From contig NZ_LIKT01000007.1 in assembly GCF_001294455.1 (NCBI RefSeq), positions 124,001 through 188,000 on the forward strand: 64,000 bases of DNA, in the 5' to 3' direction. The position numbers were made by a program, and so were the translations under genes. Positions 57,953 through 64,000 of the stretch are shown here, piece after piece. The notes under the pieces were generated by a model, which did no database searches, was not told where the DNA came from, and worked only from the letters and a program-made list of their open reading frames with translations. Numbering within the stretch: position 1 is the stretch's first letter; each line of letters opens with the position of its first letter. Source of the stretch: Phaeobacter sp. 11ANDIMAR09. GTDB taxonomy: Bacteria > Pseudomonadota > Alphaproteobacteria > Rhodobacterales > Rhodobacteraceae.

Positions 57953-57993
57953 GGCCTAGGGCGCCCTCCTGCGTCATGGGAGCTGGCTAGGCC
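57953..57993. terminator. Putative bidirectional terminator between ureG and luxI
   Basis: Inverted repeat GGCCTAG (57953-57959) and CTAGGCC (57987-57993) with inner CTCC/GGAG pairing, placed at the convergent ends of the urease operon and luxI. The second arm overlaps the luxI stop. No T-tract, so the call rests on symmetry and position. Confidence 0.4.
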
Positions 57994-58589
57994 GCCCGGC
58001 TGCGCACAGAATTGGCATCGGCTTTCATGTGATAGGCTTGGCAAAGCTCGCCCCCCACTTCCAGACGAGGGCCAGCCGGGGAAATTGACAGCCCCGTGCG
58101 CCGCATCAACAATCCTGCCGCAACCGAGGTCAGGCAGATGTAAGAGCTAAAGTTCCAGGCTTCAGCCAACCGGGCCAGGGTCAAGCCGATTTCGGTTCTG
58201 ACCCGCATCCGAATTCGGCTGTTTAACGTATCATCAACAAACACCCGACTGACCTCCCAGGTTGCAGGATCCTGCGGCGCAGGGTCGTCCAGGAGGTTCT
58301 CGGGCATATCCGGCAAGAGGCCCAGCTGTGCATCCCGCAGCATATAGCTTGCGTTGAAGTTATGGGCGGTGGTGGGGGTCACCCGCAGGCCGCCATAAAC
58401 CGTAAGTCCATCGTGAATTACGCAGTAGATGCTCTCTGGGGTGTCATATTGATCGAACTCCAGCCCCCGCGTATTGGGAAGTTTCCAGCCGCGCGCTTCG
58501 ATAAAATGGTGATACCGGGCACGCAAAAGTGCCGTGAACAAAGTTCCGGTTTCCCCCAAGTTATCAAAGGTGATTTCTGTCGATTGCAT
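57987..58589 (-). CDS. LuxI-family acyl-homoserine-lactone synthase (no adjacent luxR)
   Basis: Makes an acyl-homoserine lactone signal from SAM and an acyl donor. 200 aa. The invariant residues of the family are all there: R25 and F29 (RARYHHF), W35, D46 and D49 (LEFDQYD), R69 (GGLRVTPTT), E112 and R115 (WEVSRVFV). The C-terminal part is more divergent. No luxR-type gene is adjacent. Upstream on the same strand is a membrane hybrid kinase, and between them lies a cluster of TGTAAA/TTTACA inverted repeats. Acyl chain length cannot be told from sequence. Confidence 0.88.
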   Translation of the reverse strand: MQSTEITFDNLGETGTLFTALLRARYHHFIEARGWKLPNTRGLEFDQYDTPESIYCVIHDGLTVYGGLRVTPTTAHNFNASYMLRDAQLGLLPDMPENLLDDPAPQDPATWEVSRVFVDDTLNSRIRMRVRTEIGLTLARLAEAWNFSSYICLTSVAAGLLMRRTGLSISPAGPRLEVGGELCQAYHMKADANSVRSRAA

Positions 58590-60510: not shown

Positions 60511-61055
60511 TCGCATCGTCCTTGCGGTGTCCTTCACATCGTTCTTTGTCTGGCCAAACAAACGCCGAGAGCAACCGTTCACCACATTCCGAACTGGAGC
60601 GGATCCACATTCCCCAGTTAGCCTAGACCCCAAAAGTGTGCGGTCCTTTCATCTCAGCCCCTTCGTCACGAGACACTGCACCGATCAGATTTTCTGTTTC
60701 AGTCGTGCCGCAAGTGTTGCCCGCTAGGTGGCCTCCGATCAAGCCTATCTAACACAGACGGGACCGATGATCAGGTCTGTTGAGTTGATTTTCTCCTTAA
60801 AATTCATCTTGTTTCAAACTCTTGCCAAGCGACACAGCCAGATCTTGGGCCCATTTTAGCTAGGTCAATCTTTCGCGATCACTGGTGATTTTTGATGGCA
60901 GAGAACCCTGAAAACAGCCCTCTCGCTGGTCCGTTTTGTTAAAACAAGCACAACCTCAAGGCGCAATCAGAACAGAGGGGTGACACAGCCCCTCTGTTTT
61001 GCTTAGCCTCGTAAATGTAACGATTCCCGACGCCCTGCATTTCAGGAGCATTTTT
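60511..61055. other. Intergenic region with possible small RNA or leader
   Basis: About 545 bases between the hybrid kinase start (minus strand) and the first gene of the right-end module (plus strand). AT-richer than the surroundings. It contains a strong plus-strand terminator-like hairpin (60971-61003) but no credible protein gene upstream of it on that strand. Confidence 0.5.
60971..61003 (+). terminator. Rho-independent terminator-like hairpin with no gene upstream
   Basis: Perfect 10-bp stem AACAGAGGGG / CCCCTCTGTT around an 8-base loop, then TTGCTT. The orientation fits a plus-strand transcript ending just before the 61056 gene. As the gene on the left runs the other way, this points to a small RNA or to an attenuator in the leader of the downstream genes. 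Confidence 0.65.
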
Positions 61056-62039
61056 ATGAGTAATTTCAATCCACGCGGCTCTGAGCTCAAGGCTCTGCTC
61101 AAGCTTGCGCGCAAACAGCCCGTCGCTTTTGCCTACAACCCAGGAAAGAACGCCAAAGAAGACTATTTTGGTCTCCATCGGCAAAAATCGCCAGAAATCA
61201 TCATGAAACAGGCGCGGAGCGAGGGGCCTGGAAACAAGGTCGCCTTTGGCACATTTACGGTCGACGGCAAGGATCTGTCGTTGACCTGCCTGAAAACCCT
61301 GCCTGCCCTGGCAAAAAAACTACGCGCCTACCTGAAGGCGGAAAAAATTTCGCTCAGCATTCGTGTTCTCGACGCTGACGGCACCGAGCTGGAAGCAGAT
61401 TTGGACGAAGCAGAGACTCAGGCCAAGCCTGCCTCCCAAGAAACCTCCGCTGCGGCTCCCGTAGATGACCAAGAAACCGAGGCGCCAAATGACCCGTCGT
61501 CCCACCCAGCCCCTACAGACGATGAGGGAGCAGCGCCAACTATTGTGGCGCAGGAAGCGAGCCTAAAACAGAGACTGGCGTCCCTGACTGCGGATGCAAA
61601 GCAGACTGGCCTGGCTAAGACGCTGTTGCCAAGGGCCGCCAAGAGCCTGGTCCAGTTCATGAAGGCTCAGGATTTTGCCAAGGCAGAGGCCCTGCTTGGG
61701 GCGCTGGAACAAAAGCTCGCGGATCAGGGCGCGACGCTGGTGACTGAATGGGAAAAGGCCCACAACAGACTGGCGCTCCAGGTAGAGCAGGCCAAACAGG
61801 CGAGCCCCCAGGCTGCTGACAAGCTGGACAAAGCCTGGGCAGATATCTGCAAACAGGCAGAGGAAAAACGCTTTGACGCAGCTCTCAAGATGGCCGCCAA
61901 GCTGGCGCCTCTCTTGCAAAAACAGATCGACCGAGCCCAAAGCGCCGAAAGGGACAAACAGCCCGCCAAGGAGAGCAGACTGCCGAAGCTTGCGGCGCTG
62001 GAAAGGCGGGTCGACTCGCTTCTGGCTGCCCTGGCCTGA
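61056..62039 (+). CDS. Uncharacterised protein with novel-looking N-terminal domain and C-terminal helices
   Basis: 327 aa, no family recognised. Three parts: a globular domain ~10-118 (ARKQPVAFAYNPGK, H41, KQAR 51-54, LTC 76-78, PAL 83-85, R103, G109); an acidic Ala/Pro/Glu linker ~119-165; and a long helical, coiled-coil-like region ~166-327 with repeats of the kind FMKAQDFAKAEALLGALEQK. The N-terminal domain recurs in the next gene. No signal peptide or membrane helix, so cytoplasmic. ATG at 61056 with AGGAG 7 nt upstream. Cotranscription with the next gene (82 bp) is likely. Confidence 0.8.
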   Translation: MSNFNPRGSELKALLKLARKQPVAFAYNPGKNAKEDYFGLHRQKSPEIIMKQARSEGPGNKVAFGTFTVDGKDLSLTCLKTLPALAKKLRAYLKAEKISLSIRVLDADGTELEADLDEAETQAKPASQETSAAAPVDDQETEAPNDPSSHPAPTDDEGAAPTIVAQEASLKQRLASLTADAKQTGLAKTLLPRAAKSLVQFMKAQDFAKAEALLGALEQKLADQGATLVTEWEKAHNRLALQVEQAKQASPQAADKLDKAWADICKQAEEKRFDAALKMAAKLAPLLQKQIDRAQSAERDKQPAKESRLPKLAALERRVDSLLAALA

Positions 62040-62121
62040 CACGGGAGCCGTATTTCCGTAGCCCTTTTGTGTCCGTCAATTTTCACAAGCATTTCCCAAC
62101 CAACGCATTCTTGGAGGCCCC

Positions 62122-64000
62122 ATGGCTAGGAACATAAAGTTCGCTCAGCTCGCAAAGGTCGAAGCCGAAGTCCAGCGAATGACCGCCGAGGAAGCAGAGC
62201 TGCGCCAGCTCTGTCTTGCGGACGGCATCATCGACGCGGCAGAACAGATGGCACTGGATCGCATCAAAGACAAGATCGCCAATCTCCAAAGCACCGCCCA
62301 GGAAATCCGCACGACGCTGGAGAAAAACAAAGCTCATTTTGAAAGCCGGGCTAAGGAACTCGCCAACCTCCGGGACCGGTTGACGCAGCTCAAGGATGAC
62401 GGCCACCCCCAGGCGGAAAAACTTCAACAAGGCCTTGCCCTCATTCGGAAATGCCTGGCCGACGAACGCTGGGCGGATGCTTCGGTGGCGCTTGTGGTCT
62501 GCCTGAAACGCCTTGCCGCCATCGACGGCGCGCAGCCCGCCCCGGTCGCGCAAGCATCGGAAGACGAAGAAGAGGTGATCAGCGATCTGCCCACCATCAT
62601 CCGGCGCGCCCGCAAGCACCCGTTGAATTTTGCCTGCATGCTGGGCAAAGAGACCGTGGTTCTGAACGCGCACAAGCGCAAGGCAGTGGGGCTGCTGGCC
62701 AAACAGGCCAAACAAGAGGCCCAGTCCAAGCGCGGCGCTTGGGGGCAGATGCAGGTGGAGGCACGTTTTCTCGTCCTCACTTGTGAAGAGACCCCACCTG
62801 CCCTGCTGGCCCGCGCACTCAAACTGCATCTGCGCAACAATGGGGTTAAGCTCGGGGTGCGCCTTGTCACGCCTGAGGGCGAGGTCCTGGGCGAGGAGGA
62901 ACAGGATACAGGGCTCTCTGCCTTGCAACAGGCTTTTGAGGATCTTGATCCAGAGGCAAAAGATGCAATCAACCGCAAGACGGATGCCGCTTTTTATAAG
63001 GCCACGGGCTTTCCCAGCGGCGCCAAACTGGAACGCTCTGATCCGCGCTATGCCGAACTTGCCCCGACCTGGATGCAAATCCGCGACGATCAGGTCGCCA
63101 CCGCAGCCAATCTGGCGAAGGTTGATGATCGCATCTTTAACATTCTCGCCTTTTCTCGCGATGATCCAGAGATGACGCCGGAACTGGCCCTCACCCTGGC
63201 CAGTCTCTCCGCAAAACTCTCCTCGCTGCCCACCCGCGAGCTTGCCGCCTTTTGGGATGGCAATGAGCTGCGCAAGGAAGACCTGGCCGACTTTGCCAAG
63301 GCCTCCGACCAACTGATGCAAGAGCGGTTCGAACGGCAGGAAATGGGCGCCGGGCCCAAGACATTTGTGCCAGGCAAGGCCACTGGCACGGTTGTCGCCA
63401 AAATGAAGGGCGTGGACATCAAGGCCGAAAACCGCGAGGCACGGGATTTTGGCTCTAGGGATGCAGCCGTCGCCTTTGCCCGCTCGCTGAAAAAGGGGGC
63501 GGCCATTCTGGAAGAAGACGGCCGCTATGTCGTCTATCACGCGGATCTGAAATCGAATTTCATCTGGGGCGCAGATCTGGAACTGGATGATATCGACATA
63601 GATTTCACCAAGTCTGACGTGGATGACACCTGGGTTTCCAGCAACGCCAGCAATCTTGCCGCCATCATCACCGATGACGACTATGTCGTCGACACCCGGC
63701 GCGGGATCAAGACCTTTGCCGAGCTGGATCGCGTTGGCAGCCCGCTGGGCCCCTATGACGCCCATATGCAAGCCTTTGGGCCCGGTCTGTCACTGATCAA
63801 GGACCAGGAAAGTTTTGAGGCGCAGTTCGAATTGGTGATGCGCGACGCCACCTATGATGCCATTGCCAAGGCCGAAACCGCAGCCAAGGAGGCTGTCGCC
63901 AAATACCGCAATCCGATGACGGCAGAGGATAAGGCGGTGGCTGTTGCGGTGCTCGACAAGATCTCAGTGATCAACAAGGAGCTGGAAGCAAAAGAGAGCG
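62122..64000 (+). CDS. Large uncharacterised coiled-coil protein sharing a domain with the previous gene (runs off window)
   Basis: Open frame from ATG 62122 (GGAGG 5 nt upstream) to the window end, 626 codons without stop. Residues ~1-130 are a helical coiled coil; ~156-262 repeat the domain of the previous gene (ARKHPLNFA, GK 175-176, H184, KQAK 194-197, LTC 219-221, PAL 226-228, R247, G253). From ~263 on is a mixed alpha/beta region with ILEEDGRYVVYHADLKSNF and ITDDDYVVDTRRGIKTFAEL, and helices again at the visible end (AKAETAAKEAVAKYRNPMT). No signal peptide. No known family recognised. A long frame on the opposite strand here is the shadow of this gene. Confidence 0.82.
   Translation, partial: MARNIKFAQLAKVEAEVQRMTAEEAELRQLCLADGIIDAAEQMALDRIKDKIANLQSTAQEIRTTLEKNKAHFESRAKELANLRDRLTQLKDDGHPQAEKLQQGLALIRKCLADERWADASVALVVCLKRLAAIDGAQPAPVAQASEDEEEVISDLPTIIRRARKHPLNFACMLGKETVVLNAHKRKAVGLLAKQAKQEAQSKRGAWGQMQVEARFLVLTCEETPPALLARALKLHLRNNGVKLGVRLVTPEGEVLGEEEQDTGLSALQQAFEDLDPEAKDAINRKTDAAFYKATGFPSGAKLERSDPRYAELAPTWMQIRDDQVATAANLAKVDDRIFNILAFSRDDPEMTPELALTLASLSAKLSSLPTRELAAFWDGNELRKEDLADFAKASDQLMQERFERQEMGAGPKTFVPGKATGTVVAKMKGVDIKAENREARDFGSRDAAVAFARSLKKGAAILEEDGRYVVYHADLKSNFIWGADLELDDIDIDFTKSDVDDTWVSSNASNLAAIITDDDYVVDTRRGIKTFAELDRVGSPLGPYDAHMQAFGPGLSLIKDQESFEAQFELVMRDATYDAIAKAETAAKEAVAKYRNPMTAEDKAVAVAVLDKISVINKELEAKES

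What the first reader, a model, noticed from the sequence alone, without database searches (positions are those of the whole stretch)
61056..64000. Two-gene module with a shared, unrecognised domain
Both proteins carry the same roughly 100-residue domain (about 10-118 in the first, 156-262 in the second), alignable with only small shifts: ARK-x-P, FA, GK, H-x2-K, KQA(R/K), LTC, PAL, R and G at matching places. The first pairs it with a linker and helical tail; the second embeds it between a coiled coil and a long uncharacterised region of over 350 residues. Genes are adjacent, same direction, each with a good ribosome site, and preceded by an unexplained terminator-like hairpin. The architecture suggests two partners of one complex that diverged from a common ancestor. 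Function unknown; a scaffold, secretion-related or toxin-like complex are only possibilities.
Basis: partly seen in the sequence, partly recalled or inferred. Interest (0 to 1): 0.68.

Follow-up and report, generated by a model that had tools for sequence, protein, structure and literature searches.

The report
Likely export domain of T6SS toxins
Two neighbouring genes of a marine bacterium share a domain that seems to mark toxins for injection by an unusual type VI secretion machine whose toxins had not been described, which would give a handle for finding them.

Summary
The shared domain is real: A and B align at 32% over 105 aa (E 2e-13); 0 of 1000 shuffles score as high. Gene B continues beyond the window to 1459 aa, followed by gene C, 349 aa. 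The domain matches no Pfam family better than E 0.0007 in 57 members. [quoted passage not shown] A stand-alone copy lies 2.4-3 kb from tssC in 10 of 10 T6SS-positive genomes of the genus. In relatives the domain heads proteins ending in a deaminase or an HExxH motif, or precedes a kinase gene. In Leisingera sp. ANG59 one 1791-aa protein matches A and then B, and a C homologue follows. Best reading: A and B are a split T6SS effector, A adaptor-like, B ending in a probable PD-(D/E)XK nuclease, C its immunity protein. Secretion, toxicity and immunity are inferred. It works like RIX-type export domains; the domain itself appears undescribed.

The parts
61056..62039 (+). Gene A, 327 aa: export-type domain, linker and helical tail; adaptor-like, no toxin domain recognised
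61077..61421 (+). Shared domain in A (residues 8-122)
61533..62033 (+). Helical tail of A (residues 160-326)
   Evidence: AlphaFold2 model
62122..64000 (+). Gene B, first 626 of 1459 aa (whole gene G000:C7:186122-190501 = L002:2123-6502); hydrophobic segments at residues 784-824 and 859-877 and the putative PD-(D/E)XK nuclease end lie beyond the window
62122..62511 (+). Helical, probably coiled-coil N-terminus of B (residues 1-130)
   Evidence: weak matches to coiled-coil proteins; inference
62578..62913 (+). Shared domain in B (residues 153-264)
60968..61001 (+). Hairpin (14-bp stem, 6-nt loop) followed by a short T run, ending 54 bases before gene A; role unknown
61044..61048 (+). Shine-Dalgarno-like AGGAG of gene A
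   Evidence: sequence
62113..62117 (+). Shine-Dalgarno-like GGAGG of gene B
   Evidence: sequence

Best explanation
The module is a type VI secretion effector cassette. The shared domain (about 110 aa) is an export or loading domain for the roseobacter T6SS that carries an extra, divergent sheath protein (TssCL class). Gene A is a toxin-less carrier or adaptor with the domain and a helical tail. Gene B carries a second copy of the domain, a long middle part with hydrophobic segments, and a C-terminal nuclease-like toxin. Gene C is the cognate immunity protein. A and B would be loaded together on the T6SS spike or tube and fired into neighbouring bacteria, where the C-terminus of B acts, probably on nucleic acid; C protects the producer. 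Shown: homology of the domains, gene order, co-occurrence with the T6SS class, the fused relative with a C homologue behind it. Inferred: secretion through the T6SS, binding of the domain to a T6SS part, nuclease activity, immunity, and bacteria as the target.
For: (1) Domain in 34 of 394 family genomes; TssC in 102 of 394; 33 of the 34 have TssC. All 33 are among the about 40 genomes with a divergent second TssC, fused to TssB or alone; 33 of these 40, 0 of the other 62 TssC-positive and 1 of 292 TssC-negative genomes have the domain (tested). (2) In the genus 10 of 12 genomes have this T6SS, and each of the 10 has a domain copy 2.4-3 kb from tssC. In the family 19 of 34 have a copy within 5 kb of tssC. 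In Phaeobacter sp. G2 it lies next to tssA in an annotated T6SS cluster. (3) Different parts behind one domain: MafB19-type deaminase after DUF4781 in L027; protein kinase in the next gene in L022 and L091; HEAGH motif in L024 with a CpXC gene behind; HENAH in L090. In 11 other genomes of the genus B finds matches only around its domain (query 133-311). (4) Leisingera sp. ANG59: one 1791-aa protein matches A 1-160 and B 362-494, 502-1106 and 1207-1450 in this order, followed by a 350-aa homologue of C (33% over 341 aa, E 1e-53). (5) GDGI, EDK-[SA]-S and Q-x3-Y are kept between the two C-termini, which are 30% identical.
Against: No experiment. A and B lie on another contig than the T6SS. G062 of the family sample and G008 of the genus have the domain without TssC. 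G442, outside the family, has six domain matches and a TssB and TssC but no divergent second TssC was found there. Seven of the 40 TssCL-class genomes lack a detected domain (G157, G223, G280, G298, G307, G359, G364). In Qingshengfaniella a domain gene stands beside a type I secretion ABC and HlyD pair. The nuclease call rests on two sequences; the model of that region is unusable (pLDDT 44); Pfam and NCBIfam show nothing there; PADLOC shows a weak match of B 1363-1440 to type I restriction specificity subunits (E 0.0035); plasmids have no relative.
Confidence: 0.7

Rival explanations
1. The domain is a T6SS structural or regulatory part (for instance a spike, baseplate or chaperone component), and A and B are accessory machine parts rather than toxins.
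For: A toxin-less copy is fixed 2.4-3 kb from tssC in 10 of 10 T6SS-positive genomes of the genus.
Against: Of 34 domain-positive family genomes 15 have no detected copy within 5 kb of tssC, and most have further copies elsewhere; one relative of B ends in a deaminase; the C-terminus of B and gene C are kept together in Leisingera.
Confidence: 0.12
2. The module is exported by another route, such as a type I system or an extracellular contractile injection system, and the link with T6SS is only shared ancestry of roseobacters.
For: Type I ABC and HlyD genes next to the domain gene in Qingshengfaniella.
Against: The contig with that gene also carries tssC (G129:C3, 382321 bases, the length of NZ_CP042263.1). 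The association is with one T6SS class and is absent from 62 genomes with other T6SSs in a sample with 393 genera among 394 genomes. The other five annotated loci read list no type I ABC and HlyD pair. Injection systems other than T6SS were not searched for.
Confidence: 0.07
3. A and B are a decayed single gene: the Leisingera form is ancestral and the window copy is broken.
For: A plus B (1786 aa) about equals the fused protein (1791 aa) in length and order of matches.
Against: A and B are in different frames, 82 bases apart, each with a ribosome site. The tail of A (161-327) and the first 147 residues of B do not align with the fused protein. Stand-alone domain genes before large genes occur at 9 of 18 named loci.
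Confidence: 0.08

Closest known systems
RIX-domain T6SS effectors and secreted adaptors (Vibrio; PMC10435454: outline and sections 7 and 9 read)
   Same: N-terminal domain on polymorphic toxins; toxin-less domain proteins as first gene before effector and immunity genes; genes outside the T6SS cluster; domain found almost only with a T6SS.
   Different: RIX is a 55-aa arginine-rich stretch of two helices in Vibrionaceae and Moritellaceae; this domain is about 110 aa, alpha/beta, in Rhodobacterales, at times in tandem, and has a copy inside the T6SS cluster. RIX secretion was proven by experiment; this was not.
Roseobacter T6SS with TssCL (PMC9515649: passages and section 12 read)
   Same: The machine with which the domain co-occurs: in the window's genome a 1299-aa TssB-TssC fusion stands beside ordinary TssB and TssC.
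   Different: The paper describes the sheath protein and a search for known effectors in one strain; section 12 says no function is described for T6SSs of these or the reference roseobacter genomes. The passages I read do not mention this domain.
PoNe PD-(D/E)xK T6SS nucleases (PMC6688995: passages read)
   Same: Nuclease-like C-terminus with a D...ExK core on a modular T6SS effector.
   Different: The PoNe motif Kx3GExnGIDx2YxnYx3ExK is not in B or its Leisingera relative; C matches no Pfam family, so neither DUF1911 nor DUF1910.
Ribosomal protein eL22 (lead only)
   Same: Best PDB match of a 57-sequence domain profile, along most of the domain, E 0.0016; the 22 best rows are eL22. hhalign probability 27% against at most 1.6% in 200 shuffles.
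   Different: Pfam's eL22 family is not among the 25 of 31 families shown when 57 members are scanned singly; eukaryotic ribosomal protein; fold comparison did not test the domain.

Membership tests
Polymorphic T6SS effectors with an N-terminal export domain (general class) | One domain shared by proteins with unrelated C-terminal parts | tested here: met
Polymorphic T6SS effectors with an N-terminal export domain (general class) | Co-occurrence with T6SS | tested here: met
   33 of 34 domain-positive family genomes have TssC, against 102 of 394 overall
Polymorphic T6SS effectors with an N-terminal export domain (general class) | Secretion depends on the T6SS and on the domain | not testable with these tools
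   needs experiment
Polymorphic T6SS effectors with an N-terminal export domain (general class) | Toxic C-terminus with cognate immunity gene downstream | tested here: inconclusive
   B C-terminus and C kept together in Leisingera; activity untested
RIX | 55-aa arginine-rich N-terminal domain of two helices | tested here: not met
   domain of about 110 residues with three helices and six strands; definition
RIX | Occurs in Vibrionaceae and Moritellaceae | tested here: not met
   18 named loci are roseobacters or alphaproteobacterial bins by their record titles; none outside the own genome in 299 phylum genomes
PoNe nuclease | Kx3GExnGIDx2YxnYx3ExK motif | tested here: not met
PD-(D/E)XK nuclease superfamily | D ... 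(D/E)xK core (and Q-x3-Y of the RecB-like branch, recalled) | tested here: inconclusive
   present in 2 of 2 sequences; no usable structure
Ribosomal protein eL22 fold | Match to the Pfam eL22 family or to its fold | tested here: inconclusive

The most novel reading that the evidence does not exclude
The domain is the dedicated loading signal of the TssCL-type T6SS, an eL22-like fold recruited from a nucleic-acid-binding protein. Effectors of up to 2000 residues carry it alone, in tandem or split over two genes, and the T6SS-encoded stand-alone copy is the docking partner or the founder from which the effector copies spread, so that this machine loads cargo in a way not seen in known T6SSs.
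Probability: 0.15. Interest if true: 0.8.

Novelty: new variant of a known kind. Interest (0 to 1): 0.62.

Why it matters
The roseobacter TssCL-type T6SS has been described mainly by its sheath protein, with no function or proven effector (PMC9515649, section 12). If right, this domain lists its arsenal: 90 domain matches in 34 of 394 family genomes. On plasmid records the matching genes are annotated as hypothetical protein in 7 of 7 and 21 of 21 cases. It gives a searchable marker, many new candidate toxin and immunity pairs in marine bacteria, and a way to ask what the extra sheath protein is for.

Tried and rejected
Known families: Pfam, NCBIfam, PHROGs and PADLOC gave only weak matches below cut-off, mostly to the coiled-coil part, for A, B and C. 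A scan of 57 domain members gave 31 families up to E 1, of which 25 are shown, best E 0.00069 to the RapZ C-terminal domain (3 members); scores against cut-offs are not shown there.

Fold: Foldseek against PDB and viral models gave nothing at E 0.001 or better; the best viral row was an unnamed 155-residue protein, E 0.099, not followed up. VIA-align rows were mostly the helical tail, so the domain's own fold was hardly tested; no eL22 chain is among the 50 rows shown.

Toxin end: single-sequence model unusable. No relatives of the B C-terminus in plasmids, viral contigs (queried with the Leisingera one) or 190 class genomes other than its own. C: none in plasmids.

Phages and viral contigs: no relative of A. 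Hairpin: one Rfam match far below the gathering score to a plant miRNA family (plant: recalled), taken as chance; the upstream DNA was not found in plasmids. Similarity of the tail of A with the coiled coil of B is within chance (145 of 1000 shuffles as good).

Counting limits: one search scored at most 11 candidates a genome, so domain absences and the 19 of 34 are lower bounds. The TssCL class was counted from 37 genomes listed plus G263, G353 and G364. One search tested 34 of the 102 TssC-positive family genomes; one search's match list was cut, and the rest were judged from their match counts and places. G405 has a divergent, stop-containing TssC match and would make 41. Some genomes are incomplete (G157 and G364, 76%). 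Genomes are related, so the Fisher values overstate independence. B's domain aligns with the first copy of the fused protein (E 3e-6) slightly better than with the second (E 3e-4). L097 gave no domain ORF in my gene caller. That a thing is not in print rests (listings) only. Other papers: PMC4239648 passages, PMC10673891 passages, PMC13323088 outline and abstract.

Full report
What is there. Gene A (61056-62039, 327 aa) and gene B (from 62122) are adjacent, on the same strand, 82 bases apart, in different frames, each with a ribosome site. The window lies in contig C7 of a 4.7-Mb draft genome. Beyond the window B runs to 1459 aa, followed 41 bases later by gene C (349 aa), then a protein with weak BTAD and TPR matches, and on the other strand a peroxidase-like and a YcaO-like gene.

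The shared domain. A and B align over 105 residues at 32% (E 2e-13; 0 of 1000 shuffles as good). An alignment of 14 homologues has two invariant columns, a G and a C. AlphaFold2 gives A an alpha/beta domain at pLDDT about 95 (helix 9-17, strands 23-28 and 37-41, helix 46-56, strands 63-70 and 73-80, helix 85-95, strands 101-105 and 111-115), a disordered linker and helices from 160. In 57 members scanned singly no Pfam match shown is better than E 0.00069.

Where else it occurs. Of 394 family genomes 34 have it, with 90 matches. Of 385 class genomes, 2 (the own one and G442); of 299 phylum genomes, only the own one. Named carriers include Cribrihabitans, Zongyanglinia, Phaeobacter, Tritonibacter, Sulfitobacter, Pseudophaeobacter, Antarcticimicrobium and Leisingera. 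62 of the 90 matches lie in frames under 700 codons, 25 in frames of 1100 or more. Eight adjacent pairs, in one frame or in two, occur among the 90, so doubling is not rare. The own genome has four: A, B, a 285-aa copy in the T6SS cluster, and one at the start of a 2014-aa protein.

Link with T6SS. The 285-aa copy lies beside tssA in a T6SS cluster (tssA, VgrG and the TssB-TssC fusion by NCBIfam; tssC), near genes resembling plasmid partition RepA and RepB. The same cluster on a plasmid of Phaeobacter sp. G2 is annotated with tssA, tssB, tssC, tssE to tssH, hcp and vgrG. Besides ordinary TssB and TssC it has a 1299-aa protein with a TssB part at 8-162 and a TssC part at 899-1178, the TssCL of PMC9515649. 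TssC was found in 102 of 394 family genomes, a divergent second TssC, fused or alone, in about 40 of these. The domain is in 33 of these 40, in 0 of the other 62, and in 1 of 292 without TssC. In the genus the T6SS is in 10 of 12 genomes, and all 10 have a domain copy 2.4-3 kb from tssC; one of the two others has a lone 2007-codon domain frame, the other nothing. Against a strict rule: G062 and G008 have the domain without TssC, G442 has it with TssB and TssC but without the divergent one, and seven of the 40 have no detected domain.

Toxin-like architecture. L027 ends in a MafB19-type deaminase after DUF4781. L022 and L091 have a kinase gene next. L024, 1949 aa, has HEAGH near its end (by eye) and a CpXC gene next; L075 and L076 also have an annotated CpXC gene next. 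Among 18 named loci: five long proteins (1607-1927 aa) with a small gene behind; nine stand-alone domain genes before large genes, seven of these in a three-gene module whose third protein has hydrophobic segments; one beside tssA (by eye); two broken off or without followers; one without a called frame. Outside the surroundings of its domain, B has no match in 11 other genomes of the genus.

The fused relative. Leisingera sp. ANG59 (L103) encodes one protein of 1791 aa. A 1-160 aligns with its 1-164 (35%), B 362-494 with 525-661 (35%), B 502-1106 with 744-1353 (42%), B 1207-1450 with 1521-1775 (28%). It has domain copies at 8-107 and 167-248; the domain of B matches the first a little better than the second, so the pairing of the second with B is by position only. 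The next gene matches C over 341 residues at 33% (E 1e-53). This points to A and B acting together and to C as partner of the B C-terminus. In the C-termini GDGI, EDK-[SA]-S and Q-x3-Y are conserved, which fits a PD-(D/E)XK nuclease (core as in PMC6688995; Q-x3-Y recalled). It is not PoNe.

How it most likely works. The domain would dock the pair to the T6SS spike or tube; the size of B and of relatives up to 2014 aa makes the spike likelier, an inference. A would help to carry B, as RIX adaptors do for their cargo (PMC10435454, section 9). In the prey the C-terminus of B would cut nucleic acid; C would protect siblings.

A lead on origin. With the 57-row profile the 22 best PDB rows, and 27 of 37 up to E 5, are named eL22, best E 0.0016, collinear. 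With 14 rows the 20 rows up to E 1 are all eL22, best 0.012; with 7 close rows eL22 is first at 0.48. Single members do not show it among the listed families, and the fold search was filled by the tail. I treat it as a lead.

Verdict. The finding is a new export-domain family of a known kind, tied to one T6SS class whose effectors were undescribed in the papers I could search.

Noticed in passing
L058:5070-8969 (G000:C15:67069-70968): Giant 1299-aa TssB-linker-TssC fusion (known as TssCL) in a T6SS cluster near RepA/RepB-like genes; about 40 of 394 family genomes have it or a stand-alone divergent TssC.
   Followed up: yes
L089, L092, L093, L094, L096, L099, L101: Recurrent three-gene modules: domain protein of 538-631 aa, a protein of 807-1173 aa, and a protein of 775-1050 aa with hydrophobic segments; immunity genes were not looked for.
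   Followed up: partly
L022:6174-10407 and L091:9947-14339: Domain protein followed by a large protein with a eukaryotic-like protein kinase domain.
   Followed up: partly
L024, L025, L026, L059, L075, L076, L086, L087, L098: Domain proteins of 1844-2014 aa, each followed by a gene of about 220-240 aa that is CpXC by Pfam or annotation (L024, L075, L076) or looks like it by eye, and may be the immunity protein.
   Followed up: partly
L074:8472-11046: A Fic-family gene overlapping a short domain gene on a Parasedimentitalea plasmid.
   Followed up: no
L018:3847-8621: TolQ/ExbB-like, two ExbD/TolR-like, DUF4384 and caspase-like genes beside this T6SS; the same set is annotated in Phaeobacter sp. 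G2.
   Followed up: partly
window 60968-61001: Strong hairpin with a short T run upstream of gene A, with no gene on that strand known to end there.
   Followed up: partly
window 57987-58589, - strand: ORF that looks like an acyl-homoserine-lactone synthase (by eye, recalled) between what look like urease genes and a hybrid histidine kinase.
   Followed up: no
L002:10615-13074: Animal-haem-peroxidase-like and YcaO-like genes next to each other downstream of the module.
   Followed up: no
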